Assembly (NCBI GenBank): GCA_030248195.1
Contig: JASAND010015780.1
Location: 1 to 64,000, forward strand
Source: Trissonchulus latispiculum
Taxonomy: Eukaryota; Nematoda; Enoplea; Enoplida; Ironidae
Direction of reading: 5' to 3'
Length of the DNA: 64,000 bases
Under the pieces are notes generated by a model, which was not told the origin of the DNA, searched no databases, and saw only the letters and a program-made list of their open reading frames with translations. How positions within the stretch are numbered: position 1 is the stretch's first letter; each line of letters starts with the position of its first letter. Shown here piece by piece: positions 38,764 through 61,490 of the stretch. The position numbers and the translations under genes are program-made.

Positions 38764-39753
38764 TTAAGGTGGTGATTCCTTTTGGAGACATCAACTTTGA
38801 ACCACTATTATTCATTCATTATTTGGAGTTAAGAAGCCATCTTTATATCAAAATGTAGCTTAACATTTTCTCGTTTTAATGAGTACAATGAATCTAAGTT
38901 TGGCTTTCCAAAATGTTTTTCCTGTATTTTAGAAGAAGTATAATTTTTCAGATTTTTTGCAGGCTGAAGTAAATTTTTTCGCAGGACATCGGTTAGAGCA
39001 TTCGATACCTCTATCAAATAGCTGGGGACCCTTTTTTAGTTATTGTGATATCGGTCTTCGTTATGGAGAAATAAACTAAAATGTCTGCGCAACCTGGATT
39101 TTGCCTACTTTTCACTACTTTGGCAAGCCACTACTTCAGTTAGAAAGCAGTTATCGGGGCAACTAAAAAAGGGTCCCGGGGTATTTTTGTGTAGAACACA
39201 TCTGCTAAGTGGCAACTCTCTAGCTTGCATACTAAATTCTGCACAATCGCTGGAAAAAATTTGGTCGTGTTTTTGCAAAAACTACATTTTTTGTGATAGC
39301 AGCCTAAGGGATAGCAATTGTACGATGGTCATGCCTCCGATAATTAGCCTCTGTGAGACCTTTAAATCGACACCTTTAGTTAAATTTTACGGCTTTCGTA
39401 GCTCAAGAAGTAGTGGATTATTTGATTTCTGCAGAAAGGACAAGTTTTTGACGCCAAAATAAGAAAATTGGCTATATCTCACGATAGGGAAAAGCTAGAA
39501 AGTTGCTTCCAAAAGCAAAATTGTAGAGTTTAACGCGTTCTTTCGAATGGATATAGTCATAGCCATGCAGCTGCTGCCAAACGTTCAGAAATTGGCAAAA
39601 ACAGCCCTGAACGCAAATGTTGAATTTTTGAAGCGCGATTGCGCAGAGGGTGTTAGAACGCTGAAACAACTTATTTTGGAAAGTTTCGTTGAATTTCATC
39701 CTGGTTTACGCCGTCAATCAACAATATGTGCCCAAAAGGAATCACCACCTTAA
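38764..39753. mobile_element. TTAA element family 1, complete copy, 990 bp
   Basis: TTAA plus GGTGGTGATTCCTTTTGG on the left; CCAAAAGGAATCACCACC plus TTAA on the right. An inverted copy lies at 60511-61490 and a fragment near 421-556. Non-coding. Confidence 0.8.
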
Positions 39754-40326
39754 CTTAAGTCGTTTAAGTAGTCCCCCTTTCACAAAAAACCAGCTACTTA
39801 AGCTTTAAGTAAAGTGGCGTTTCACAAATACAGGTCTACTTAAACTTTCAGCGAAGCCGTTTAAGTAGAACTGCTTTCATAAAAACTACTTAGTTTAAGT
39901 AGTTTAAGTAGATCGCTTAAATGCAGTTCAAAATCAGTCATTTTTAAGCTCCGTAGATTTACGGGGCTTAAACGACTTAAACGAAAAGATTACTATTAAG
40001 TGAACATTTTAAAAGCTTCATAGCGTACGCAATGTTGGGAGTTGTGAAGCCGTTTTTGCATCTTTCGAAAGCTCTTATCGAGTACTTTAATTTTACAATA
40101 TCGTTGCAAACGTAAATATTTTCGAAAATCCGTTAATACTTCAAATACTAAATTTTTTGTCTAAATTTGGCTTGTATATATCAGCTTCTAAATGAAAAAG
40201 AAACCTTCTAAATGAACTTGATTTGCTCAAACATGTTGTCCCAATTGAGAACCAATTGTTTTACACAATTAACAAGTTGAATTATATAAGAACGTTTTGA
40301 GTTATCTTGCTAGCTATCATGATTCC

Positions 40327-40935
40327 ATTTAGCGACATCAACTTTGAACCATTAGTATTCATTTAATTCTGGGAGCTAACAAGCCATCTTACATCAAAAT
40401 GGCTGAACATTTTTAAGTGTACAATAAAATGAATATTGGTTGTCTATAATTAAACTAATGATTTTTAGAAGAAGCGAAGTTTAAAAGAATTGTTTACCGG
40501 CTGAAGTAACTTTTTGCCGAGACATCTTTTACATAAATCGGTACCTCTGTCCAATCGCTGGGGAACCCTTTTTAGTTATTATGAAGTAGCTTTTAGTAAT
40601 GGAGAATTTGGCAAAATGTATGCGTAACCTGGATTTTATCTCCAATTCTTAACTTTGACAAGCTGTCGCTTTCGCCAGAAAGCGGCTACGAGAGCAACCC
40701 TCATAGATAATTTGATTTCCACAAGTCTCTGGTTTTTGATGCCATAAAACGAATAATTTATGTAAAGGCGTGTCTGCTCGCTGATTGGCTCACTTAAGCC
40801 CAAGACTTTCCTTTGGTAATTTATTAGTAATTTTATTAGCTGCATCAACCTAATTATAGTAAATACACTGCACAAGGGAAGCAGCAATTTAAATGCTGGC
40901 CCGTATCTTATAAGGTACTGGTTTCCTTTCGGGTA
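40327..40935. mobile_element. TTAA element family 1, truncated copy
   Basis: It starts GACATCAACTTTGAACCA as at 38787 and follows family 1, with substitutions, to about 40700 or beyond. Both ends are lost and it runs into a family 2 copy. Confidence 0.55.
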
Positions 40936-41935
40936 TTTTTGACTCATACGGCTTTAATCCTTTACGTAAATGGTTGAAACTTACGAAATAAGCTATTTCC
41001 ATGCTCTTTAATATTCTGGGACCAGTCTCGTATTTTTAGGCCAAAAGATAAGAAAGTTTAGGTTTTTGGCCTTAGGCTCCCAGTAGGTAGAGAAGACGCG
41101 GGATTGGTTGTTATGGCTGGAAAGAGGACACGAAAATGAACATTTGGCTTTTACAACTTTTGAGCTATCTCCAGTGGTTAAGTCAGTATAAGCAAAAAAC
41201 TGTTTTTTGGGTCAAAAAATGGCCATTTTCGAGGAAATCACTTTTTTCAAAATTACTGCCACATGTTACGGACAAAGTTGGCTTATTTATAGTCAACCGA
41301 TACAGCGTCTAAATGCACATTTTATGAATGCCTGTTAGCTGAACTTTATTGCTTTAAGCTAGAGATTTGGCCGAAAAACCATTTTGGCGAAACTGCGATT
41401 ATTTTGTTTCGAACATCGATTTCTCAAAAACTACTCGACAGATTCCGGAGATTTTTGGCAGAATTGAAATTCGTACTTCTGCGGAGGGACGTTTTTCTTG
41501 GTTTGAGCTAAAACAACTCCAGTTGCGAGAAAACTGAATACAAAGTTCAGAAATTTCGAGTCGCCGCACACTTGCCGGATGTTCTGGAGTATTGAGGCTT
41601 GTTGAGCCAAATCCAGAAAAACGTCCCTCGGCCCATATGTCCTCTGTATGATAGCACAAGAAAACATTTTGGCAGACTCTTCAGTTTAGAGAAATCGATG
41701 TTCAACAATGTTTGGTCTATATTCATCCTGTTAGATGTCAGCAAGTCTGAAAATTTCTGCCACTTTTTTGCGAATTTTGCTAGTTTCGTAAGCTCATGAG
41801 AATCTACAGATAATAAGCTTTAAAACGATGTATAGAGCTCTTTCCAACTCCTAAAATTGCGAAAGTAAAAGCGTTTCAAAAAAATCACCATCAAAGCAGC
41901 ACTGCACAAAAGGATACCACCACCTTAAAGTGCAC
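40936..41935. mobile_element. TTAA element family 2, left-truncated copy
   Basis: It aligns with 55716-56676 (GGGACCAGTC, TTTTGAGCTATCTC, GGCCGAAAAACCATTTTGG) and ends GGATACCACCACC-TTAA. Its left terminal repeat is missing. Non-coding. Confidence 0.65.
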
Positions 41936-46113: not shown

Positions 46114-49100
46114 TTATAGGTTCACAATATCATAGCCTAAGGGTACAGTTGAAAAATCGTCCAAAATAAGTCTTTTATCAAAAGTTGTTCGAAAACGTTT
46201 AGAACTAGATTTATTCTGTAATTGGGCTGTCCGTTTGCATCTGGATATAGAGCTGCTATCCACATTGACAATTCGTGCTCCTTCGTTTGTTGCTATATCC
46301 TTCATAACTTGAGGAGTGATGACTGCAGCATTCTTGAACGTTAATTTAATTCCCTTGATTTTATAGTCAGCAATCGGCCCTGCAGTTGTATTTACACTGT
46401 AGCCGTAGCTTTTTGGTCCAGTAGACCAAAATTCGGATGCAGAGGAACCTTTGCCATATTTGTCTTTAAGTTCATCTTTGAGTTCCCCCAAACTGTCTCC
46501 TTCAGGCAGTTCCTCTTGATTAGGACGGGATACGTAAATAATACTATCCGTGTCACAGTACAATGTTCGGTCCCCAGTTATTTTCAAGTAAGTGAAAAGT
46601 TTTATTCTAGCGTAGGCAGTGGTGAAAGCTCCAATTATTATATTATTGAAAGGAGCTGGGCAGGCATAATCCTGACTGCTTTTATATTGCAGCAGCATTA
46701 GGTTGTCTCCAACTATGATTGCATCCGTCACTGTCTTGGATTTATCCAGCAACTGCTTGACCAGCTGTTCATATGAATTGACGTATGTTGTCTTGTACTG
46801 GTTTTCCTTCTGAGCAAACTTTCCCCAAAAGCTGAAACAATAAGATACTGAAACAATAAATTAATCTCCAAGAAACAATTCAGCTAACTTGCGCAAAAGT
46901 TTAAAAATAATGCAGTTTAAATATAATATTACCTGTTAAGGATTAATTTCCCATATGTCCTTTGACCAGAGTTGTGCTGAATATTATTCTTATCCAATCT
47001 GATGCCTTCTTTTTCCCAAATTTCGTCAACATAACGTTGTTTTCCTTCTTCGGTTTGCACATCTTTGGGAAATCCACTGGCTTCGATTTTAATCTTCAGA
47101 AATGCGTTAATAAACTCTTTAAAAAGTTCTCCGCTTCTATTCTCAGGGGGCCAATGCCATACTTCATGTACTTTTATAATCTTGTATCCTTCACTAACTG
47201 CTAGCTTAAGTTCTTCGGACACCCATGTTCCGTGAAGAGTCCTTTCCTGATTTGAATGAAAGCACTGTTTTCGAGGTAAAATATGGCAGCATGACTGGCA
47301 AAGTGGAAATAGTAGTTTACCATTGGCACGATAAGGAAGTATCGGAATAAATAAGTTATTAGGAGGTAATACGTCACATTTGATTAATCCAAAATAATGC
47401 TCAATGGTTGTCCCAACAGGGCTAATCTGAACATCGGGAGTGTGAATTGGATAGATACCATACTTATTTACCCATGGATACTGACTTGTGATATCAACGT
47501 GACGTATTTTTTCACCCTGTTTGGCTTTATAGTATAAATACATAGGAGACACTCTACCACCGTAAAAGGCTGCTTTAGGTATCAGGGGATCCGCTATTGA
47601 CAATGATTTCGTGAAAAGCTTTAAATGTTTATTGCCACTAATTTCTGCATCCCAATCACATTCCCATTTCTCCACAACAGCATATCCTGCTTGTTTCAAT
47701 TTATCAGAGATTGCATAGGTATTTTGTCGAAGTTTATACATAGGAATTCCCATTAGCGGATGAATGTCACTTGGCTTATACTTTTGGCAAACATGATAAT
47801 GAAAAAAGCATCCGTGAAAGAAGAAAACTGTAGGTTTTCCACAGACATTTTGGCAAAATCCGTCCACGAAATTACCTTCAATCTTTATTTCTCTGCCCTT
47901 TCGACCGCTAGTAATTACTATTCCGCACAACTTTTCAATCCATGACATCCACAAAAACGCTTTGTGAGAATGCGACTTCCGTTTTGGAATGCCAAAAGCT
48001 GATATGACGGGTATTGTTTTTTTGGGCATATAATTTATTCGGTAGATCAAATTGCATGCGGATGCAATTGTAATGCTCGAGCTAAAAGGGTCAATGTTGG
48101 TGGTATCAATAAATATTTCCCGAAATTTGGTGCAGGCAAGGGCCAGAATAGTTACATCTTTAGAGCAGTAGGTGTGCAATTGAGCCTGTAAATTATATAA
48201 AGTTCCGCTTTCCTCAAATCTACGTTGAGTTTCTGAATACCATGCTTCAAATTTAGTCTTTTGACCTTCACACATTTTTTCAGGAGCAAAATAGTGTTTT
48301 TCTGGAAATGCTCCGATATAATTCTGATTCTGAGTAGTGTTAAAAAGGTGAGGAAAATGACCTTTGGCTAATTCATCGTCAAGACCAAATGCTTTAGGTA
48401 GTGCCGCCAGTGGTAAAGGAATAAAATTGCATGAGTCGATAAATTTCAGCTTGTTACTAATTGTAATCATCATAACTTTGCACCCGTTGAAAACTATTTC
48501 TTTTGGCCTGATGGAGTTGACATAAAGGTATCGCAATATAGGGAAGGCATCATAAGACTTAAAATTGTGGGCAACAGCAATAACGGGGTGTGACGACTTT
48601 TCGGTATAGCGAAATATGAATTCCATAAATAAAGAAACGCAGGTCCATCCAGAAAAAGATTGCTGAGGATGGTTATTTATCTGCGTTATTAGTAGATTTG
48701 GTGTGTGTGTGCCTGAATCTTGTACCGCTTCAATGTCGAAATAAGCGTAGTCAACGGAATTGTCTTTAATTGCTGGAGGTTCTATATAGCATGTATGATT
48801 AGGATCGTCATTCCAAATGCGACAAATTCCACACTGACTTAATCCGCAAAAATGTTTTTCTGGATCCAAATACTTTCGTCGTAAAACCTTGTTGCATCGT
48901 ATACACTTCTTGTACGTTTGGCACAGTTTCTTTTTATGATTTTCAAAGCATTCACTGGTTGCCCAAGTTCTATTACAGTGGTTGCATAATAAATATATAG
49001 CAGGAGTATCAACAGTTGCAGGACATGAAGACTGTTTACAAAAAGGGCAGGCATTTGTACAACGGTGAGAATTGTCATATCCTTTTCCGCATTTGCTGCA

Positions 49101-50156
49101 GAAATAAGATGTATTGAAAAATCCAGGCATTTTACGTATAACATCATAATGACGGTCGTGATAAAGCAGATTTATAACATTGTTATGATTTGGACCGTGA
49201 AATATTCGCTGTCCACATTGATCAGCAGAAAAAACGTTGATTTGGTACTGGCTCAGTGAACAACACTCTTGGACCGTGAATATCCGTCTATTGATCGGGA
49301 AATGCTGTTGAAACTGCTGAATTTCGGCTATACCACACTTCCCAAATTGAACTCCAGCCTTTTCGTGCAGTTTTATGGCCTTCTCGTATTGAAGGCCATG
49401 AGAGGATTTTGGAAATATCAAGGCTTTGTTCCATAATGACTTATCATATTTAGTTATGTGAATACCAACGACAAGCGCTCTGGCCAGACAAAGATCATCA
49501 TTATTTTTAATGCGTATTACACTTCGTTTATCCTTGGAGAGCCAGCTGCCAAACTTCCGACTTGCTCCTTTCCCTCCAGCCGAAAAGTCAGTATGAATCA
49601 TGTTCAGATGACAGGAACCGTCCAACGAAAAGTCTTCATTTGAGTTTAGCACGTTTACTAGTCGTTCCATTATTAAATCCACGCTTATATCGTCAACAGT
49701 TACGTATGGAATGGCAATAGGATAGCTAAGGCCTGAACTTTGCAAGACAATTCTCATATAGTCGGACCCAGATTTGCCAGATTTCAGTTTCTCGAATATA
49801 TCGTGCAATATCTCGTGCAGCATTTCGTAAATTTCGTTTCCTCTGAGGGTGTCCAAATTGCGGAACGTAATATCCATATCCTCTACAGTAGTCTTAAAGT
49901 TGTGATTGACCTTTTTTGAAATTTTGTTGATTACGTAGTGTTGACCTTCCTCAGGCTTCTGGTTTTCTTCTGTCACATCGCTCGTTGGCTTGTTGTGAAA
50001 TTGAGAATGTTTATCAAACCATGTTTTGGATACAAAGTTTTTACCACAATATGTACAAACAAATAAATTATCAGTATTCATATGGTACATTTTTTCATGT
50101 TGTCTTAAATTGTCACGGCGGCTAAAGCTAGCCGCACATTTGGAACAGTTAAACAT
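46114..50156 (-). CDS. Protein-primed DNA polymerase B, two exons
   Basis: Exons are 50156-46933 and 46831-46114; together 1313 residues in one frame. This is the replicative polymerase of Polintons. The N-terminus has two C2H2 zinc fingers (residues 4-25 and 34-54). Residues about 214-345 carry NNDDLCLARAL and a later DRHYDVI, like a Cys/His OTU-type protease domain. A Cys-rich zinc region follows (350-460). Exonuclease motifs are FDIEA (D474, E476), AHNFKSYD (N531, D536) and YCSKD (Y663, D667). Polymerase motif A is HVDITSQYP (D888) and motif C is YCDTDS (about 1166-1171). Motif B is split by a 101-bp GT-AG intron: KLILN ends exon 1 and FWGKF opens exon 2, with a serine codon across the junction. 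The exon 1 frame stops three codons into the intron if unspliced, so splicing is needed. All catalytic motifs look intact. Confidence 0.9.
46832..46932 (-). other. Spliceosomal intron in PolB, 101 bp
   Basis: On the leftward strand the donor is AACAG|GTAATA and the acceptor TTGTTTCAG|C, with a duplicated TATTGTTTCAG-like pyrimidine tract. Phase 2. Splicing unites the two halves of polymerase motif B. Confidence 0.85.
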
Positions 50157-50362
50157 AGATCACAGAGACAGGATCGCCGTTGAAGTATTTGTAAATGCGA
50201 ATAACAGGAAAGGAAAAGCAGGCGGGAAATGAGCAATCATCGTTTAACGCATCCAAAAGAGCTTCTTCGAATCCTGGAAAACACCGATTCGATCGTCCAA
50301 CAATAAGTACAGAAAGACCACACACAGACACTTTATCCCAGCTGTACTGAACGTGCGGCTTT

Positions 50363-51358
50363 TCAGTGCAGAAGCTTTCGTTTGGGAATTTCTTTGAGAG
50401 ACTCATTAGCTTGCTCCACAGGATTATCGACATTCAATAGTTCTTGGGAATAGAAAGCTGGAAAAAGAACATTACCGTCATTATCTTCAATTCTGTATCT
50501 GTGTTTTGGACCTGATAACTGTGCGCAAATTTTAAAGATTTCCGCAGAAAAAGTAGGCTCGTAACCTTTAGCTACCGCTGATTTGATCAATTGAACTCTG
50601 ACACTATCGCCTTTTTGAAACGAAAATGGCTTAGAAGTTTTCAAGATGGATTTGGTTTGAAAAGCGTAAACATCAGCTTGATTTTCTGGATTTATTTCAC
50701 TTGGAGAAAAGTTGTTTAAAATTTTCATTTTGCGTTTATTCATCCCATCTACAATACGTTGCAGACTATCAATATATCGAAAAGTATCGTTTGCGAACAT
50801 AAACCGATAAAGCCGTTTCTTCAACTCTCGGATACATCTCTCTGCCAATGAACTTTTAACTCGTTCATCTGTAGCATAGTATATATGCACGTTGTGCTCT
50901 CTCATAAACTGTTTGAACACTGAGGATGTATATTCAGTACCTCGGTCAACGTAAGTATTTGCACAAATACGACTAGAGGATTCAATGATATCCTTAAAGG
51001 CATTTACTACATCTTGAGAAGTCTTAGATTTTAATGGCCGAGCCCAACAATAACGTGAAAATTCATCAACAACAATTAGTATAAATGTGAATCCTGAATT
51101 GAACCGCTTTAGTGAAGACATATCGCACAGATCCGATGCCCATGTTTCGTCAAGAGTAGCCACTATTTGCAGTCGAGGAAACTTATAGCGAGGATGTCTA
51201 GTTCGTGAATACACAAACTGGGATTTTAGAAAATGTTCCACGTCTTTCCTGGATACTTTAAGCCCTCTATCTCTAGCATACTCATACAAACTGTTAATGC
51301 CGCTGTAAGCAGCAGCAGATTCCGGACTGTACCAAAGATCACTAAGCTCGTCAGACAT
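50363..51358 (-). CDS. Polinton integrase (retroviral type, DDE)
   Basis: 331 residues, intact. It catalyses insertion of the element's linear DNA. The rve core runs from about 65 to 200. Catalytic residues are D76 (WASDLCDM), D138 (YVDRGTEY) and E173 (SSLAERCIRELKKR), with 34 residues between the last two. The C-terminal part (about 255-315), with KGDSVRVQL and a following FYSQEL, matches the DNA-binding tail typical of Polinton integrases. The canonical N-terminal HHCC zinc finger is not obvious. It lies leftward between PC4-like and PolB genes; a 94-codon ORF overlapping its 3' end (50433-50149) is probably a shadow. Remote possibility: a Ginger-type transposase, but the neighbours settle it. 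Confidence 0.92.
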   Translation of the reverse strand: MSDELSDLWYSPESAAAYSGINSLYEYARDRGLKVSRKDVEHFLKSQFVYSRTRHPRYKFPRLQIVATLDETWASDLCDMSSLKRFNSGFTFILIVVDEFSRYCWARPLKSKTSQDVVNAFKDIIESSSRICANTYVDRGTEYTSSVFKQFMREHNVHIYYATDERVKSSLAERCIRELKKRLYRFMFANDTFRYIDSLQRIVDGMNKRKMKILNNFSPSEINPENQADVYAFQTKSILKTSKPFSFQKGDSVRVQLIKSAVAKGYEPTFSAEIFKICAQLSGPKHRYRIEDNDGNVLFPAFYSQELLNVDNPVEQANESLKEIPKRKLLH

Positions 51359-51415
51359 TGAAAAAATGCTTTATTTGTACAGCATGAGTCTATATACAAA
51401 ATCTCTTTACTTAAA

Positions 51416-52528: not shown

Positions 52529-52577
52529 AGAACAGATTGTTTGAATTTATTAGTCTCTGTTTTCAATTATCACCATT

Positions 52578-53057
52578 ATGGATAAGAAAATCACTCTTGG
52601 AATTGTCGCTGCTGTCACTTCTGTAACTTTTATCATAAGCATTACCTTAACGAATCAAAACATTTGCTGCTACGAGTGGCTGAAGCCTAAGTTTGAAGAG
52701 CCTATTGATCCCCAAATCTGGTACCGCATTGACTTTGATCAACGAAACGTATCGACTGAAAACACTTTATACAGATTTGCGCTGGACATACTAAAGTTTC
52801 CTTACCAGCTTTGTGACGAAACCTTACTCCAGCTAATCGAAGTGTGCGAAGATATAAGCCAAAAGCTAGACTTAGTAGACAAAGGAATCGTTGGCAAGTT
52901 CTTAACAGGAGAAGTGGAACAAAGTTTTAGCACTGAACGGTTTACGCCCTTTATTTTCGCATAAACTTTCCTAAGACTTGACATCGACAGCGTTGTTGAC
53001 TACGATACTACGCTGTATTGCAATATACAAGTAATCGCCCAGAAATCCAACTTTTAA
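52578..53057 (+). pseudogene. Single-pass membrane protein with in-frame stop
   Basis: The ATG at 52578 opens 128 residues: a basic start (MDKK), one membrane helix (about 6-26), CC after the helix, then a soluble, acidic domain. The stop is TAA at 52962-52964, but the same frame stays open for 30 codons to TAA 53055-53057 with protein-like sequence (LDIDSVVDYDTTLYCNIQV). Either the protein naturally ends at 128 residues or it has been shortened by a nonsense change. It stands in the virion block, so a structural or membrane role is likely. Family not recognised. Confidence 0.5.
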
Positions 53058-53258: not shown

Positions 53259-54579
53259 TGCCTCATGTCAGCGTTGGTGACTCCTGCTCAGTGCAATCGT
53301 TTGCCTGGCAGGAAAAGCTCCCCATGCAGACGGATGTTACCAGTAATCAATTACGGGGGATATCTCTAGTCACTCCTTTACCGCGAACCGATCAAACAGC
53401 TCTTGAATTTCGCCTGGAGAAAGTACCTGACCAATGCCTAGAGTTTTATCATCAATGTTTCTAGCCATTGAGGTGCAAGTTCTTAACAGCGACCTTACTA
53501 ATCTGACCAGCACATCCAAAATATCCGTCTGCAATATGTTTGGCTATGCTCTATTTTCTGAAATTGAAGTCTTCATCAACGGTCAAAAGGTAAGACCACA
53601 CCAGGATATGTTTCCGTACCAGGCCTATACACTGGCAATGCTAAATTTTTCAACACCTACTAAAAAGTACTTGCTCAGCACCTGTGTGTTTGAAAAGGAT
53701 ACCAGCTACGCTATCGATAACTGGGATCCCACATTACCGGATATCGCGGTGAATAAAGGTCTAAAAAAGCGACTGGAATATATTTCAAAGTCCAAGAAAC
53801 TGTGCCTTGTAATGAGACTATTCCATGACATCTTCGGAAGTATCCGCTGTCTGCCTACGGACTGTACAGCCACCTTCAGGTTTCATCGCACGGATCCTAA
53901 GTTTACCTTAATCGGCGATGCCTCAAAAACCTATGCAATAAAGATTCTGTCGGCGAAGCTAATGGGAACCTTCTTTGAACCTAGTCCTACTTCACTTTCT
54001 TTGCAGAATCGGTTACTGCAAAGCGGAACATTCCAGATTCCTGTGCTCAGGCATATAATTAGAACTCAAACTATAGCTAAAGGCTCCAAGACCTTTCATT
54101 ACGACGCACCCTTTCTAGGTCGAATTCCGACAAAGATTTACGTGTTTATGGTTAAAAGCAGTGCCGTGACTTCGCCGGAAATCATAAGAAACCCCTTCAA
54201 TTTAGTTTACATGCATACCTCCCGAATCCATGTCTATAAAAACGATATTCCACTATTTTCGACGGAAGGACTCAGCCTCAGCGACACTTCTTATAATCTA
54301 ACATACTTTTTCTTCCTGCGAGGACTCAACTTTGCCAACGACGACCCTGGAATTAATCTGGACGAATATACAAATGGCTTTTTCATTATGCCCTGTGACC
54401 TGACCCGAGATCTTAGCAGCAACTGCGACTACTTATCGCCTCCAGAAGAAGGCAAAATCAGCATAAAGCTGTGGTTTGACAAAGAAACGCCCGAAAACGT
54501 GGTAGTGTTCTGCATCGCTGAGTACGACACTGCGATTACCCTAAATAGCGATAGGAATCCCAGCGTCGATGAATTGTAG
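53258..54579 (+). pseudogene. Major capsid protein, frame-broken near residue 60
   Basis: The N-terminal frame (53258-53464) begins MPHVSVGDS and includes TALEFRLE, the usual opening strand. The main frame (53434-54579, 381 codons) is -1 to it and carries the Polinton MCP landmarks: an FSEIEVFINGQKV loop, MFPYQAYTLAMLNFS, NKGLKKR, LFHDIF, a second jelly roll with NPFNLVYMHTS, NGFFIMPCDLT and a C-terminal beta strand with a short acidic end. The family forms the double-jelly-roll hexon-like capsomer. The frames overlap at 53431-53464; I see no canonical slippery heptamer there. Overall length (about 440 residues) is usual for the family. Confidence 0.85.
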
Positions 54580-54645: not shown

Positions 54646-54708
54646 AAGGCCCTAACCTGAGACTAGACACATTGTTTATATTAATAGCTGTTTACAGTAG
54701 TTATCATA

Positions 54709-55365
54709 ATGTATGTAATAGAGTACCCTTTGCAGATACTTATGCCGTCACGCATTGCCGTGATTGGCAGTTCAGGTAGCGGTAAGACTTACCTTATCTA
54801 TAGAATGTTTGTGAATAGTGATACGGCATTTGACAGTCCAATTTCACGCACCGTGTTTATGTACGAAACTGAGCAGCCTCTGTACACTAAAATACAAGAA
54901 GAAATACTAAATGTCACGTTTATCAAAGGCCTCGATGAGGAATTCATTGCAAACAAAGACAACTGGACGGGAAATTCTGTTTTAATAATTGATGACCTGC
55001 AGCTAGCAAGCAGCTCAAACGAAACCATATATAAATTGCTAACAATCTATAGTCATCACTATAACATTACCGTGCTTATGCTGTGGCAGTCACCGTTCCT
55101 GGAAAGTCGATACGGCCCTTCTATCTCTCGGCAGTTTAACCACTTGCTCTTGTTGACGTCACGACGGGATCTTCGAGCTATAAGTACGTTGGGTTCACAA
55201 ATAATGCTAGGAAAAGCTAAAACATTTATGCAAATGTACCAACAAGCCATTAGTGAGAAACCGTATAATTATTTATGGATAGACGTTAGTCCCCAAACCC
55301 CAAGAGAACTGCAATTTCGCGGCTGTTTACCGTTCGAAGACAAACAAATTGTGTATTTACCTTAA
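54709..55365 (+). CDS. DNA-packaging ATPase (A32/FtsK-HerA type)
   Basis: 218 residues, intact. It powers DNA entry into the capsid. Walker A is GSSGSGKT (20-27), Walker B VLIIDD (91-96), followed by a conserved HH pair and LMLWQSPF (about 116-130), matching the sensor strand and glutamine of this family, where WQ/QN is usual. An in-frame ATG at codon 12 (MPSRIAV) is a second possible start. Length is normal for Polintons. It follows the capsid gene in the rightward block. Confidence 0.92.
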   Translation: MYVIEYPLQILMPSRIAVIGSSGSGKTYLIYRMFVNSDTAFDSPISRTVFMYETEQPLYTKIQEEILNVTFIKGLDEEFIANKDNWTGNSVLIIDDLQLASSSNETIYKLLTIYSHHYNITVLMLWQSPFLESRYGPSISRQFNHLLLLTSRRDLRAISTLGSQIMLGKAKTFMQMYQQAISEKPYNYLWIDVSPQTPRELQFRGCLPFEDKQIVYLP

Positions 55366-55422: not shown

Positions 55423-55722
55423 ATGTCTTTGTGTGTTCAAGAAAATATAACCTGTCTGCAGCTAATAGGTGCATCTAAGCAAGTGAGAAGAATTACGGAA
55501 ATAATTGCTGAAGGACACGATTCTTTCTTTGATTGCGTCACAGAAATAGCTTGGAACATGCTCTATTCAGACATAATCCCATTGAAACCCTCCCAGCTAA
55601 AGAAGCTGAAAGCTTATAGATTATTAATTAAAAAGTTGGCATCTCTGACAGTCAGCAATCGTAAGAAGCAGGCTATCCTGCTTAAGGTGCTGGTATCGCT
55701 TTGTGTAAATTTGACCCTATAG
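55423..55722 (+). pseudogene. Small helical Polinton protein, split by a TTAA element
   Basis: The frame begins MSLCVQ and continues with a helical pattern resembling the short protein that often lies just after the ATPase in invertebrate Polintons (IAWNML, LSQLKKLKAYRLLIKKLA, KKQAILL). At 55682 a 995-bp TTAA element is inserted; the last 12 codons are from the element. Right of the element, from 56677, about 40 bp of the original gene 3' end remain and the frame can be followed across the TTAA duplication. The function is unknown. Confidence 0.6.
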
Positions 55723-56676
55723 GCTTTAATTCTTTATGAAAGTGGATGAAACTTTCCAAATATACTATTTCGGTGCTCTTTAACATTCTGGGACCAGTCC
55801 CGCATTTTTACGTGCAAAGATAAGAAATTTTTGGTTTTTGCCATTATTCTCTCAGCACATAGTCGAGACACCAGATTGGTTGGTTTGGCTGGAAAGAGGG
55901 CACCAAAATGAACATTTTTGCTTTTACAACTTTTGAGCTATCTCTAGTGGTTAAGTCAGTATAAGCAAAAAACAATTTTTGGGGTCCAAAAATGGCCGTT
56001 TTCGAGAAAATCAGTTTTTTCAAAATTACTGCCAAATCATACGGACAATTTTGGTTTATTTATTCTCGATCGATACACAGTCTCATTGCACATTTTATCA
56101 ATGCCTATTAGCCGGAGTTTGTTGCTCTAAGCAAGAGATTTGGCCGAAAAACCATTTTGGCAAAACTGCGATTATTTTGTTTTGAACATCGATTTTAAAA
56201 ACTACTCAATGGATTGGCGTGATTTTTGGCAGAAGAGAATTCGCACTATTGCGGAGGGACATTTTTCTTGGTTTGAGCTAAAACCTCTCCAGTTGCGAGA
56301 AAACTCAATGCAAAGTTGCGAAATTTGTGTACCGCACATTTGATGGATTTTCTTGACCGTTAAGACCTGTGAGCCAAATCCCAAAAAATGTCCTGGCCAC
56401 ATTCCTTATAGGTCGGCGCAAGAAAAATGGCCGATTCACAGTTTTGAGAAATCGATGTTCAAAAATTTTGGTCTATCACCTGTCAGATGTCAGTATGTCA
56501 GAAAATTTTCGCTATTTTTTGCGGATTTTTACTAGTTTCGTTCTGTCATGAGAATCTACAGATTATAAGCTTTAAAATGATGTATAAAGCTCTTTCCAAC
56601 TCACAAAATTGCGAAAGTTAGGGCGTTTCAAAAACTACCCACAAAAGCACTGCACAAAACGATACCAGCACCTTAA
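55682..56676. mobile_element. TTAA element family 2, complete copy, 995 bp
   Basis: TTAA plus GGTGCTGGTATCGCTTTGTG on the left; CACAAAACGATACCAGCACC plus TTAA on the right. Non-coding. A left-truncated copy lies at 40936-41935. Related in length, target and termini to family 1, which has GGTGGTGATTCC ends. Confidence 0.88.
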
Positions 56677-56727
56677 GCAGCCCCGACTGCTTCAGTACAT
56701 GGTCCGACTGGTATTACCTGTGCTGCA

Positions 56728-57201
56728 ATGAACCGATACGCTCTTGTAAACGAGTCACTGCTACCCGGAAGACAGTCAGAATTTGTTGAAAGTGTTTTAA
56801 GCATTTTGAATTCGGATAAGTCAGAAACCGAAAAGAAAAAAGAAATAGCAGCACTTTGTTAGTCTGAGGAAACTTTGGACTGGGTTCTTGACTATATACC
56901 GAAAGTCGGGAAATCCAAAGCCAAGTTATTACTGAAATCCATTCAAGAGAAAGTAAAAGTTGCCGAAAACGGTAATTTGGTTATTACTGGAGACGAAGAA
57001 AAAGAACTTTCAAATTTTGTGGATCTGATTAAATATGTAGTGACTCCAGAAAGCTTAAAGCAAGGTCGCCCGCTTCGACTTCACGACTTTCTAGAGTTTC
57101 TTAAGGATGAAAATATTCCAATTTCCGCATACGGTGCAGGTAAACAAGAAACAAACGAAGTCAGAAACACAAACACTAAATGGAAGCGTTTATTTGATTA
57201 G
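56728..57201 (+). pseudogene. Second small Polinton protein, one in-frame TAG
   Basis: From the ATG at 56728 (MNRYALV) the frame is open for 157 codons except for TAG at 56860-56862. It is helical and charged, with KKKEIAAL before the stop and YIPKVGKSKAKLLLKSI, ITGDEEKELSNFVDLI and a C-terminal Gly/Asn-rich tail after it. The layout fits the second short protein that follows the ATPase in many Polintons. The stop overlaps the stop of the convergent gene at 57198. Confidence 0.5.
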
Positions 57202-57857
57202 TAGATTCCACAAGGAAACATGTCCAAATAATATTTACAAGATAAACCATGAGCACAACATCCTATTAGCAGAGGCCAGTGCAAGCAATCAACGGTACAG
57301 CAACTTGGATCTGTTTTAGTACAAGAATTCTTTCCATGATAGCAACAATATAAGTAACTATTATCATACAACAATTCAATGTGCGGAAGCAATTCTGGAT
57401 TGTAACAAGAACAATGACACCAAAAGCGTTTATACTTAGCAGCCTGGCATTTAATATCGTGTTTTGTAGGGTACCCATTACAAATTGCACATAATGTATG
57501 CGTTTTCATGTGTGCCGATACATTATGGTTACTTTGGACTACGTGCTGACGAGGAGGTTTTGCTAGTAAGCAACCCATACACATGTATTTGTCCCTCTCA
57601 ATATCCATTTCAGAGACACTGTCAATTTTAGTCTGTTGAGAGTCGACATCTTTTGACTGAAGAATCTTTTCTTCTGCAATCTTTTCGTTCAAAAATTCAT
57701 ACTTGTAGTGATGGTACTTGAAATATCGAACCATAAGTGCTTTCAGATTTCGAAACTCGTCGCTATCAAGAGGCTTATCTTGTGAACATCTAACCCATGT
57801 AATTAACCCTTCAGTAGACGTGAACGCATCATTTACAGCACATTGTAGCAAATCCAT
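57198..57857 (-). CDS. Cysteine-rich protein, 219 residues
   Basis: The N-terminal half (about 1-90) is charged and probably helical; the C-terminal half has over 20 Cys and many His in CxxC and CxC pairs (CMGC, CAICNGY, CHCSCYNP, CCYHGKNSC, CCTVDC), implying several bound zinc ions or a disulfide-rich fold. It is intact, and directly follows the kinase-like gene (stop 57858, start 57857), so the two may be co-transcribed. RING- or LIM-like roles are possible; no exact match recognised. Confidence 0.6.
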   Translation of the reverse strand: MDLLQCAVNDAFTSTEGLITWVRCSQDKPLDSDEFRNLKALMVRYFKYHHYKYEFLNEKIAEEKILQSKDVDSQQTKIDSVSEMDIERDKYMCMGCLLAKPPRQHVVQSNHNVSAHMKTHTLCAICNGYPTKHDIKCQAAKYKRFWCHCSCYNPELLPHIELLYDNSYLYCCYHGKNSCTKTDPSCCTVDCLHWPLLIGCCAHGLSCKYYLDMFPCGIY

Positions 57858-58749
57858 CTACAACAATACATTTTGTCCGTTACGCTTTAAAAAGTCATGG
57901 TAAGTTTCATAGCATTCTTTAAAATAAGCAGATTTTCTAAAGTTTCTAAATTTGATTCTTCGATTGATGCGGAGACAAGATCGGATGAATTTCCGCATGG
58001 CAAAAGAAATATGGAGAGGAAAATTTTCCTCCCCGCAAAACAGTCGGCCAACCACCAGAACATACAGCAGCTGGCCAAGCTGGTAGGAGATCAGCTTCCC
58101 AGCAGGTAAAGTTAAATCATTCACATATTCAGGTGGAGTAAATCCCACAGAGGAATTCCCCTTTGGAATATCCTCCAGTTCCGACCTTTTCTCCACCTTT
58201 ACCATGTCATTAAGTCGAAAATGACGTGGTATCTTGGACTTCGGATCAAACATGATGTGATCGCGGAAATGTCCCGTAGAATAATCCGGCAATTTTTGAA
58301 TAGGCTTTCATAGGTAAGGTACAACTGAGCAAAAATGATTTTTGCGTCAGTTTCGGACATGGGTCCATGATCGAGTACGTACTTTCCCAACGAAACCTCA
58401 TCGGGGGATGCCCTGTCATACACCAGCAGCACATGTGTCCTTGAATCCCCTGCACCGCATCCTTACTGACCGCAATAAACTCCGGAATTAGGACCCCTGG
58501 TTCACGCTCAAGTTCAGCTAAGTTATCTACTTCCTGGGGTATGGGAGTCCGGTTCGAGAGTGTTCGGCCGATTGGACATCTGTTAAGAGGGATCATCCGG
58601 ACACACGATCTGATCTCGTCCCACAGCCCGTTCTTGTTAACGAATCTTACGGTTGTAGTAACGTATTCTCCTTTTCTGTCACGCTTTTGATATTCAGCAG
58701 GTTTGAACACAACCTTGTTGGTGTTCCCGTCCAAGATTTTATAAGCCAT
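57858..58749 (-). pseudogene. PIM-like protein pseudokinase, frame-broken twice
   Basis: Three leftward frames, each -1 to the last, follow one kinase fold: 58749 to about 58440, about 58450 to 58280, and about 58300 to 57858. Landmarks match the PIM kinase order: TPIPQEVDNLAELE (helix C with Glu), MLLVYDRASPDE and LGKYVLDHGPMSETDAK (hinge and following helix), RIILRDIS (catalytic loop), NDM at the DFG position, GFTPPEYV (activation-segment PPE) and LGQLLYVLVVGRLF (helix F and beyond). Key residues are missing: no Gly-loop, HRD is LRD, the loop Lys and Asn are replaced, and DFG is DM. So even unbroken it would be a pseudokinase. It is probably captured from a host; role unknown. Confidence 0.65.
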
Positions 58750-58795
58750 CTAGAAAAAGCTACTTTTATTATTCTATAGTGTATACAAAATGTAG

Positions 58796-59354
58796 CAAAT
58801 GCTAAATGATGTAGGTTTGAGTCATAAGAGTCTGATTGCTGATTGCGTTAATATTCGCAAAATTGCTTCAGCTGCATTGCTCTGTGCAAAGAGCAGTAGC
58901 GAGCAACAGCAATACAACATTGCCAATGTTCCTGGCAACACCGGAATGGTGTCGCATCTGGTATGCGATAGTAAGCAGGGATATCGATTGCTTCCCCTGC
59001 CACGACAGGAATCGAAACCCCTGATTGCTCAAACGCCGCTTTCAAAAACTGCACCTACGCAGAACCCTTGGTCACCACCTGGGATACGTTTAACCGGCAA
59101 ATCAAGCTGATAACCTCCAAACCCCACTCATCAGCCGATGGCAGAGTTGAGCAAGTGGTCCAATACGCACCACTTTTATCCACGGCCCACTTCAGAGCCT
59201 TCAGCTGATCTGAACTGAGATCACTGGACGGGCACGGAGCCTTTATTGCAGACGTGTAAACGACCCGAGGGTCAGAGAAAACGACTGCTCCCTCTATAGG
59301 GACAGGGTATAGGTTTGGCATGCCGATCATGTTGATGGCAACATAAGCCTTCAT
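58796..59354 (-). pseudogene. Unknown Polinton protein with in-frame TAG
   Basis: The leftward ATG at 59354 opens 99 residues (MKAYVAINMIG) to TAG at 59057-59055; the same frame stays open for 68 more codons to 58848. After about codon 145 another frame becomes hydrophobic (VVLLLLATAL), so a frame break may also exist. Features include SDPRVVYTS, LPSADEWGLEVISLICRLN and GVSIPVVAGEA, which look like an alpha/beta enzyme or nuclease fold, but I do not recognise it. It heads the right leftward block. Confidence 0.45.
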
Positions 59355-59400
59355 TCTGCAAACATTAAAGAATTGCGTTATGCAACACTTTTCATAAAAT

Positions 59401-60010
59401 AATTAATTACTGCTGCTGAAGTGAACTTGTTATAATGAGCAAACCCGGCAAAAAGCAAATTTTAAGTCAACCATAACCTCAGCCGTTCTTTCCTTCGGTT
59501 GTTTTTGGATAGGTATTCCTAAAGAAGAGCCTTTTTCTAAAATGACAACTACTGTAAAAGTTGTTTGTTTTAAAGTATATATTAGTTTTTATGCTTTGTT
59601 TCAACCTTGCATCAGACCCTGTTTTAATTCAAAGACATTTGCAACTTTCTGTCACCATTTAAAAACATTGTCTGGCTGGAAACCTTTTTTTGCAAGCTGG
59701 TAAAATCAGCAAAGAATACTATTACAGGAATCTTATCTCAGACATATATCTTAGATTTGTCACTGTGAACTTTCTACCAAGACAACTTTTTGCAAAAAAG
59801 TACAAAAAATTACGAAGTTGGTCAAATTCAAGGACTAATAATTGTTCTAATCGCACAATCTGTATAGAATACTTGTGCACTCGATCTTGATTGTAACTGC
59901 TCAAATAAGTGCATTCTGCTCATTCATGCATAACAACCTACTCAAACATAATTAGCACCCTACTTTGACCCTTATCTAACAACCTATTTTAACCCTTATC
60001 AGATAACTTA
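59401..60010. other. AT-rich flank; short tandem motif
   Basis: No gene was seen. ACAACCTA(C/T)T(C/T) and ACCCTTATC motifs recur at 59933-59998, just before a TATA box. Confidence 0.4.
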
Positions 60011-60510: not shown

Positions 60511-61490
60511 TTAAGGTGGTGATTCCTTTTGGGTACATATTGTTGGTTGGCGGCGTAAATCAAGATGAAACTTGACGAAACTTTCCGAAATTCGTTCTTT
60601 TAGCGTTCTAACACCCTCCGTGCAATCCCGATTCAAAAAGTCGAAATTTCCGGTCCGGGCGGTTTTTCCCAGTTTCGGAAAGTTCGGCAGCAACTATACA
60701 GTTATGACTATATTCATTCCAAAGATCTCATTGAGCTTCATATTTTTGCTTTTAAAGCAACGTTCTAGCTTTTCTCTACCGTGAGATATAATCAATTTAC
60801 TTGTTTTGGCGTCGAAAACTATATTTGCAGAAATCAAATAATCCGTCATTTCTTGAACTATGCAAGTCGTAAAATCAAACTAAGGGCGTCGATCTGAAGC
60901 TCTCATAGGGTCTAATTATCCGAGGCATGATCGTCTTCCAACAGCTATCCCGTAGACTGCTATCTTAAAAAATGTAGTTTTTGAAAAAACGCCAATTTTT
61001 TCCAAAGATTGTGGAGCATACACCATACAAGCTGGAAGGCTGCTACTTAACGGATGTGTTCTGCACACATATACCCAGGGACGATTTTTAGTTGCCCCGA
61101 TTACTGCTTTCTAGCTAAAGTAATCGCCTGACAAATTTGGAAAAAGTAGGCAAAATACAGGTTACGCACACATTTCAGCGTATTTCGCTATAACAAAGAG
61201 AGATTTCACAATAAATGAAAAATCGTCCCCAGATATTTGATGGAGGTATCGAATGATACATCCGATGTCTCGCGAAAAAATTTACTTGAGTCTGCAAAAA
61301 ATCTGGAAAATAATACTTCTTCCAAAATGTGTTTTAAATATTTTAGAAAACCAACATTAGTTTCATGGCATGCATTAAAGAGAGAAAATATCAAGCTGCA
61401 TTTTGATTTAAAAATGGTTTTTTAACACCAAGTGATGAGTGAGTAATAAACGTGCAAAGTTTATGTGACCAAAGGGAATCACCACCTTAA
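60511..61490. mobile_element. TTAA element family 1, complete copy, 980 bp
   Basis: TTAA plus GGTGGTGATTCCTTTTGG on the left and GGGAATCACCACC plus TTAA on the right. Opposite orientation to 38764-39753. Non-coding. Confidence 0.85.

What the first reader, a model, noticed from the sequence alone, without database searches (positions are those of the whole stretch)
57858..58749. PIM-like protein pseudokinase carried by a Polinton
Three consecutive leftward frames trace the PIM kinase landmark order (QEVDNLAEL, LLVYDRASPDE, LGKYVLDHGPMSE, LRDIS, TPPEYV, LGQLLYVLVVGRLF). The catalytic HRD, loop Lys and DFG Gly positions are lost. I know of no Polinton core or usual accessory gene of this type, so capture of a host signalling kinase turned pseudokinase, as in some large DNA viruses, is a plausible new accessory function.
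Basis: partly seen in the sequence, partly recalled or inferred. Interest (0 to 1): 0.75.

Follow-up and report, generated by a model that had tools for sequence, protein, structure and literature searches.

The report
Pseudokinase gene family carried by Polintons
A virus-like mobile element in this eukaryotic genome carries a broken copy of a gene for a dead protein kinase; sister elements in the same genome carry whole copies that selection has kept, so it looks like a working non-catalytic protein whose job is still unknown.

Summary
Minus-strand 58749-57858 is one gene read in three overlapping frames. The pieces alone match kinases only weakly, but in PIM order and spacing: 0 of 1000 shuffles and 0 of 410 other window stretches reach the pair score. 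The host genome settles it: 94 matches at 83 gene places in 70 loci, many with open frames of 280-300 aa. Relatives match Pkinase (13 of 16), PIM-2 (6e-6) and a PIM profile (hhalign 1e-10). None of 30 open frames has the full catalytic set: loop Lys 0, loop Asp 2, DFG Asp 15. dN/dS is below 1 in 34 of 34 measurable pairs, and the gene tracks the Polinton ATPase and a neighbour. So it is a conserved, catalytically dead accessory protein of one Polinton lineage; the window holds a lately disabled copy. The "PIM" label is only partly secure: wider alignments favour RSK or MSK kinases. Mechanism is inferred: a non-catalytic binder of host signalling proteins, like vaccinia B12. I found no description in print.

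The parts
57858..58749 (-). Disabled copy of the Polinton pseudokinase gene (892 nt, ATG to TAG, two frame changes)
   Evidence: relative L009:3013-3906, 297 aa in one frame
58246..58749 (-). Frame piece 1 (167 aa): N-lobe to about the hinge, with the V-R-M-I-P block and the conserved alpha-C Glu (IPQEV)
   Evidence: first 100 residues 97% identical to L009; no Pfam or PDB kinase match of its own
58199..58462 (-). Frame piece 2 (87 aa): hinge, alpha-D/E and the catalytic-loop remnant LRDIS
   Evidence: PF00069 E 0.17; PIM profile 117-169
57858..58307 (-). Frame piece 3 (149 aa): C-lobe, DFG site changed, TPPEYV, QLGQLLY
   Evidence: PIM profile 207-271; 94 matches in the host genome
57198..57857 (-). 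Cys/His-rich ORF starting directly after the pseudokinase stop; found beside it in 20 of 20 fetched stretches (weakly, E 8e-5, in L022)
56863..57201 (+). Small conserved Polinton ORF (19 of 20 fetched stretches)
59055..59402 (-). Accessory ORF upstream of the pseudokinase (relative in 19 of 20 fetched stretches)
54688..55365 (+). Polinton packaging ATPase (A32/AAA-like)
   Evidence: AAA_22 1.9e-5, Pox_A32 9e-4, both below cut-off; relatives
53431..54579 (+). Major capsid protein-like ORF (assignment recalled from motif and position; Pfam gave nothing)
   Evidence: syntenic relatives
50363..51370 (-). Retroviral-type integrase (rve)
   Evidence: PF00665 5.1e-11
46929..50159 (-). Type B DNA polymerase, main part
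   Evidence: PF03175 7e-32
46114..46860 (-). Type B DNA polymerase, C-terminal part, a separate open frame
   Evidence: PF03175 0.015 (below cut-off)
55686..56671 (.). About 986-nt insertion absent at the same spot in relatives L009 and L010

Best explanation
57858-58749 is a recently disabled copy of a Polinton accessory gene for a kinase-fold protein of about 280-300 aa that had already lost catalysis in the family's history. Whole copies in sister elements are kept by purifying selection and have stayed with the capsid/ATPase module of one Polinton lineage; in part of that lineage the gene is duplicated in tandem. Most likely mechanism (inferred): the protein cannot transfer phosphate but keeps the kinase scaffold (alpha-C Glu in 30 of 30, a Lys or Arg in the likely beta-3 block in 24 of 30) and acts by binding, either to a host kinase or to its substrate or regulator, shifting host signalling in the element's favour. 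Shown: kinase homology by sequence, catalytic-residue loss, selection, synteny. Inferred: lack of activity in the test tube, the binding mode, the partner, and the donor gene. The confidence given is for identity, history and pseudokinase nature; the binder step alone I put at about 0.5.
For: Homology: Pkinase in 13 of 16 near members, best 1.7e-8. In PDB profile searches the rows shown (60 of 386, 314 and 498) are kinases, best E 6e-6, 6e-6 and 5e-8. hhalign to PIM: probability 96.9, E 1.4e-10 for the near clade, and 96.2, 2.3e-9 for the far clade; 0 of 100 column-permuted alignments of each came near (best score 22.5 against 77.8, and 24.1 against 69.7), and reversed alignments fail. Catalytic loss in 30 open frames: loop Asp kept in 2, loop Lys 0, loop Asn 9, DFG Asp 15, all four 0, alpha-C Glu 30; no GxGxxG at the aligned place. 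Selection: dN/dS below 1 in 34 of 34 pairs with an estimate, below 0.5 in 33; in 19 pairs with dS under 1 the range is 0.10-0.86. The window's in-frame stretches give 0.16 against L009 and 0.12 against L010; L009 is unbroken and has the same catalytic losses, so decay of the window copy did not cause them. Residence: Mantel r of pseudokinase with ATPase 0.90 (13 loci, 0 of 999), Cys-rich ORF 0.97 (15 loci, 0 of 999), MCP-like 0.97 (6 loci, 5 of 999), out of 18 loci tried. Linkage: 36 of 58 ATPase places of the near lineage lie within 8 kb of a match to piece 3, 0 of 89 of the distant ones. Precedent for mechanism: vaccinia B12 pseudokinase copurifies with host VRK1 (PMC9175622, abstract).
Against: No structure: the single-sequence model of piece 3 was meaningless (pLDDT 41). 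No expression, partner or phenotype data. Fifteen of 30 keep the DFG Asp and 24 of 30 a Lys or Arg in the likely beta-3 block, so nucleotide binding or odd chemistry is not excluded. The glycine-loop and beta-3 placements are uncertain, and L031 has a two-residue insertion at the loop. Only 2 of 7 far members match Pkinase, best 0.0083. In 15 of the 34 dN/dS pairs dS exceeds 1, near saturation, and the distal tandem copies are looser (0.19-0.86 at dS under 1; L022b/L024b 0.86 with dS only 0.016). The pairs share ancestry and are not independent.
Confidence: 0.7

Rival explanations
1. The family still transfers phosphate, or another group such as AMP, by a non-standard route, as some proteins once called pseudokinases do (WNK, CASK and SelO, recalled).
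For: 15 of 30 members keep the DFG Asp, 2 keep the loop Asp, and 24 of 30 keep Lys or Arg in the likely beta-3 block with the alpha-C Glu in 30 of 30.
Against: The loop Lys is lost in 30 of 30, the loop Asp in 28 of 30, no glycine loop is seen, and the residues left differ between clades.
Confidence: 0.12
2. A structural or replication protein of the Polinton that reused a kinase fold, for example a virion component, with no role in host signalling.
For: Its identities track those of the ATPase and the MCP-like gene, and it lies beside them.
Against: No match to piece 3 within 8 kb of any of 89 distant Polinton ATPases, which still have the packaging gene, so it is probably not a general virion part. 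The more sensitive search that would make this firm did not complete.
Confidence: 0.15
3. Just a decayed host kinase pseudogene that landed in a Polinton, its catalytic residues lost by neutral decay.
For: The window copy has two frame changes and a nearby insertion.
Against: Unbroken, selected copies with the same catalytic losses in fixed synteny. The window copy differs from L009 by only 25 nt over 273 codons.
Confidence: 0.02
4. A separate question: the two frame changes are assembly or read errors and the window copy is whole.
For: The alignment to L009 shows only two one-base gaps over 2089 nt, and the compared stretches hold no stop.
Against: Other copies are also split or hold stops (L004, L005, L006, L008), and the polymerase of this element is in two frames too.
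Confidence: 0.25

Closest known systems
PIM family Ser/Thr kinases (CAMK group)
   Same: Best PDB match of the near clade; aligned from the alpha-C motif (VP-E) through PPE to the C-lobe end, similar size
   Different: Catalytic loop and DFG residues lost, no glycine loop, only 23% and 21% identity over 204 and 185 aligned columns, intronless, in Polintons; RSK and MSK kinases score as well or better with other alignments of the family
pim-like gene of Teratorn (herpesvirus fused to a piggyBac transposon, medaka fish; PMC5601938, passages seen)
   Same: A PIM-like gene carried as a cellular homologue by an integrated DNA virus
Vaccinia virus B12 pseudokinase (PMC9175622, abstract and outline seen)
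   Same: Virus-encoded pseudokinase; acts with a host kinase (VRK1)
   Different: Related to VRK kinases (recalled), not the CAMK group; poxvirus; one gene rather than a many-copy family
Polinton/Maverick accessory genes (PMC8097293, passages seen; PMC4028283, passages seen)
   Same: Lies in a region flanking the core modules, where vertebrate Mavericks carry diverse accessory ORFs
   Different: The word kinase occurs in neither paper's main text

Membership tests
Protein kinase homology (PF00069) | Significant profile match | tested here: met
   13 of 16 near members, best 1.7e-8; member 1 (7.5e-7, 29.2 bits) is below the 31.7 cut-off. Far clade 2 of 7, best 0.0083. hhalign to PIM 1.4e-10 and 2.3e-9
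Protein kinase homology (PF00069) | Three-dimensional kinase fold | tested here: inconclusive
   Only piece 3 was folded, without an alignment, pLDDT 41; loci from this genome are not on the folding tool's list and were not sent
Active protein kinase | Loop Asp, Lys and Asn and DFG Asp together | tested here: not met
   0 of 30 open frames
Pseudokinase | Kinase homology with catalytic residues lost, in a gene kept by selection | tested here: met
Pseudokinase | No catalytic activity | not testable with these tools
   Needs purified protein
PIM subfamily | PIM kinases as nearest relatives | tested here: inconclusive
   PIM first for A1 (28.8 bits against 25.0 for RSK2); MSK1 and PDK1 first for A3; RSK1 first for A4 with PIM-1 about 4 bits behind
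PIM subfamily | PIM hinge ERPxP | tested here: not met
   L009 reads DRASP and the other near members differ again; the PIM form is read
Polinton element | Type B polymerase, rve integrase and packaging ATPase in one element | tested here: met
   PF03175 7e-32, PF00665 5.1e-11, ATPase matches below cut-off
Polinton element | Terminal inverted repeats | tested here: inconclusive
   38764-39753 and 60511-61490 pair at 79.7%, but a related stretch at 40320-40683 suggests a dispersed repeat

The most novel reading that the evidence does not exclude
A Polinton lineage has carried, and in part duplicated, its own family of dead kinases for long enough that the copies diverge to about 20% identity, under constraint where it could be measured. 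It would be a dedicated non-catalytic signalling antagonist or hijacker of a Polinton virus, and direct evidence that these elements interact with host signalling as viruses do.
Probability: 0.45. Interest if true: 0.8.

Novelty: new variant of a known kind. Interest (0 to 1): 0.62.

Why it matters
Polintons are thought to be viruses, but how they handle the host is largely unknown (general knowledge). A selected pseudokinase family gives a concrete protein to test for host partners. It also lets catalytic loss in a kinase be followed across several Polinton clades of one genome, from forms such as HRN...DFSG to forms such as YRG...FNG, so the order of loss could be traced.

Tried and rejected
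Pieces in viral contigs: 2 pattern matches each, none confirmed; family alignment there: 560 pattern matches, none confirmed; MCP-like ORF there: 1, not confirmed. Protein database of 5.8 billion: piece 3, 44 candidates, none at E<=1; family alignment, 1968 candidates, none at E<=0.001. The bar in that database is high: matches as weak as those would not be expected to pass it. Single-sequence fold of piece 3: useless. Decay as cause of the catalytic loss: rejected. The 79.7% inverted pair as proof of an old insertion: not accepted, it may be a dispersed repeat, and the coding stretches are far closer to their relatives. Far-clade copies as something unrelated to Polintons: rejected for the 3 sampled, each with an ATPase on a flank and 2 of 3 with an MCP-like gene. 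A far-clade query of the whole genome, to look for pseudokinases beside the 22 near ATPases without a match and the 89 distant ones, did not complete, so absence there is not shown.

Rows dropped or limited: for the 30-frame table (23 near, 7 far) I left out L018 (a relative of L014 with small deletions, used in A1), L025_3569 (runs past the usual end), L008_1270 (reads on into the next gene) and partial frames; two of the seven far frames (L031, L035) lack the N-lobe. Of the ten far stretches 10 hold a frame matching the family HMM, three of them partial (L036, L037, L038). For one search I copied 147 of the 150 listed ATPase rows by hand, leaving out three second pieces of one gene (C4262, C8071, C15652); the tool counted 152 matches and scored 150 of 929 first-look candidates (77). 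Some of the 58 near places are fragments or second copies on one contig. Of 46 pairs above 55% identity, 12 had saturated dS and gave no ratio (60). One search shows at most 25 matches a locus. One search listed 15 of 138 papers.

Full report
WHAT IS THERE. The minus strand of 58749-57858 reads in three overlapping frames. The gene-like unit is tight: its ATG follows a TAG directly, and its final TAG is followed directly by the ATG of the next ORF. Within the stretches I compared with relatives (100, 48 and 125 codons) there is no stop. The element around it has a type B DNA polymerase (PF03175 7e-32), an rve integrase (5.1e-11) and an ATPase with sub-cut-off AAA and A32 matches. The ORF 53431-54579 I take as the major capsid protein from recalled motifs and position; Pfam gave nothing for it.

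IS IT MORE THAN CHANCE. Singly the pieces are weak. Against an HMM of 86 vertebrate PIM1 proteins, pieces 2 and 3 are the best two of 749 frames in the window, in profile order and spacing, though a third, unrelated frame scores almost as much, and piece 1 ranks 240th. The best single score was reached by 2 of 1000 shuffles; the ordered pair score by 0 of 1000 shuffles and 0 of 410 other stretches.

WHOLE RELATIVES. The host genome (734 Mb, unnamed) gave 94 matches to piece 3, which group into 83 gene places at 70 loci, with 13 pairs 0.6-2 kb apart. Twenty stretches of about 8 kb were fetched. In them a relative of the Cys-rich ORF is found in 20 of 20 (weakly in L022), of the small ORF 56863 in 19, of ORF 59055 in 19, of the ATPase in 16 and of the MCP-like gene in 12; four stretches (L016, L018, L022, L025) show neither of the last two, and two of these reach a contig end. 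In 24 loci, 26 ORFs of 270 aa or more were read, one of them running on into the next gene. Ten further stretches around weak matches gave ten family matches, seven of them open frames of 248-303 aa that I call the far clade, two without the N-lobe; near and far clades match at hhalign E 1e-37. Flanks of three of the seven were read: three of three hold an ATPase and two an MCP-like gene.

KINASE IDENTITY. Pfam Pkinase matches 13 of 16 near members, best 1.7e-8, and 2 of 7 far members, best 0.0083. PDB profile searches return kinases in the 60 rows shown: PIM-2 and PIM-1 first for the near clade, MSK1 and PDK1 for the far clade, RSK1 for both together, with PIM-1 about 4 bits lower but over the longest stretch. 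hhalign against PIM gives probability 96.9 and 96.2, and 0 of 100 permuted alignments of each approach the score. Kinase homology is therefore secure by sequence; the subfamily is not.

CATALYTIC RESIDUES. In 30 open frames aligned to PIM: loop Asp kept in 2, loop Lys in 0, loop Asn in 9, DFG Asp in 15, all four in none; the alpha-C Glu is present in 30, and a Lys or Arg before a conserved Pro, the likely beta-3 residue, in 24. The clades read for example LRDIS...RFNDM (window clade), YRGMS...CFNGA (proximal copies), FRGFL...YDFDD (some distal copies) and HRNIT...IDFSG (one far member, L035). The beta-3 and glycine-loop placements are less certain than the C-lobe, and L031 has an insertion at the loop.

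SELECTION AND HISTORY. Of 46 pairs of unbroken copies above 55% identity, 34 gave a dN/dS, all below 1 and 33 below 0.5; in 15 of them dS exceeds 1. At dS under 1 the values are 0.10 (L009/L010), 0.13-0.27 (11 proximal pairs) and 0.19-0.86 (7 distal pairs). The window's in-frame stretches differ from L009 by 25 nt over 273 codons (dN/dS 0.16) and from L010 by 85 (0.12). Both relatives lack the roughly 986-nt insertion at 55686-56671. So the gene was under constraint until recently and this copy has since been disabled, unless the two frame changes are assembly errors. Identity among pseudokinases tracks identity among the ATPases (13 loci, r 0.90), the Cys-rich ORFs (15 loci, r 0.97) and the MCP-like genes (6 loci, r 0.97) of the same elements, out of 18 loci tried. 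The tree splits near and far clades and makes proximal and distal tandem copies sister groups with moderate support (92/92), which fits one duplication; the join to PIM is between long branches and says nothing on the donor.

DISTRIBUTION. Of 58 ATPase places of the near lineage, 36 lie within 8 kb of a match to piece 3; of 89 distant ATPase places, none. The query is weak for distant relatives and the better query did not complete, so these are lower bounds. Outside this genome nothing was found: viral contigs and 5.8 billion proteins. That database does hold many animal proteins, but mobile-element genes are often left out of annotation (general knowledge). Other eukaryotic genomes could not be searched here.

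HOST. The genome has stretches at 48-62% identity to human PIM1, different parts of the protein lying kilobases apart on one contig (C11735, C3429, C7026, C4568), which fits ordinary spliced PIM genes.

MECHANISM. Shown: a kinase-derived, catalytically depleted, selected, lineage-specific Polinton gene. Inferred: it works by binding. Viral precedent: vaccinia B12, which partners host VRK1 (abstract). Precedent for a PIM-like gene in an integrated virus: Teratorn (passages). I rate the binder mechanism at about 0.5, a virion or replication role at about 0.15, and residual catalysis at about 0.12.

PRINT. Papers holding polinton and pseudokinase: 0. Polinton, PIM and kinase: 9; I looked at passages of one (Teratorn), the rest only as listings. 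Adintovirus and kinase: 2; passages of one seen, its only kinase is a thymidine kinase. Searches (15 of 138 listed; 6; 3) seen as listings. The word kinase is absent from the main texts of the vertebrate Maverick paper and the capsid paper. The library lacks most subscription papers.

Noticed in passing
window 55686-56671 and 40911-41882: Two direct copies (blocks 78-89% alike) of a repeat of about 970 nt; the second is an insertion absent from relatives L009 and L010, and 41-nt inverted arms lie at 55665-55705 and 56653-56693.
   Followed up: partly
window 38764-39753 and 60511-61490, also 40320-40683: Inverted pair at 79.7% that looks like terminal repeats, but a related stretch elsewhere suggests a dispersed repeat; the element's true ends are not known.
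   Followed up: partly
window 57198-57857: Cys/His-rich protein family beside the pseudokinase; 53 invariant columns in 8 members, no convincing Pfam match (DUF7913 0.0024 at best, below cut-off).
   Followed up: partly
window 58758-59402 against L009 and L010: Identity of 97% and 91% to relatives stops within 36 nt of the pseudokinase start codon, and the next ORF upstream is only about 50% identical: a mosaic border, perhaps recombination.
   Followed up: no
G000 contigs such as C13805, C16366, C2040, C3235 (L026, L025, L027, L024): Tandem pair of pseudokinase genes about 1.0-1.3 kb apart; in the aligned set the 8 distal copies keep the DFG Asp and the 8 proximal ones lack it.
   Followed up: yes
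G000, listing: At least 89 further Polinton ATPases of a distant lineage (27-37% identical) in the same genome, with no match to pseudokinase piece 3 within 8 kb.
   Followed up: partly
window 52554-52964: Small ORF with a sub-cut-off match to adenovirus E3 CR2 (E 0.0041), perhaps only a shared membrane segment.
   Followed up: no
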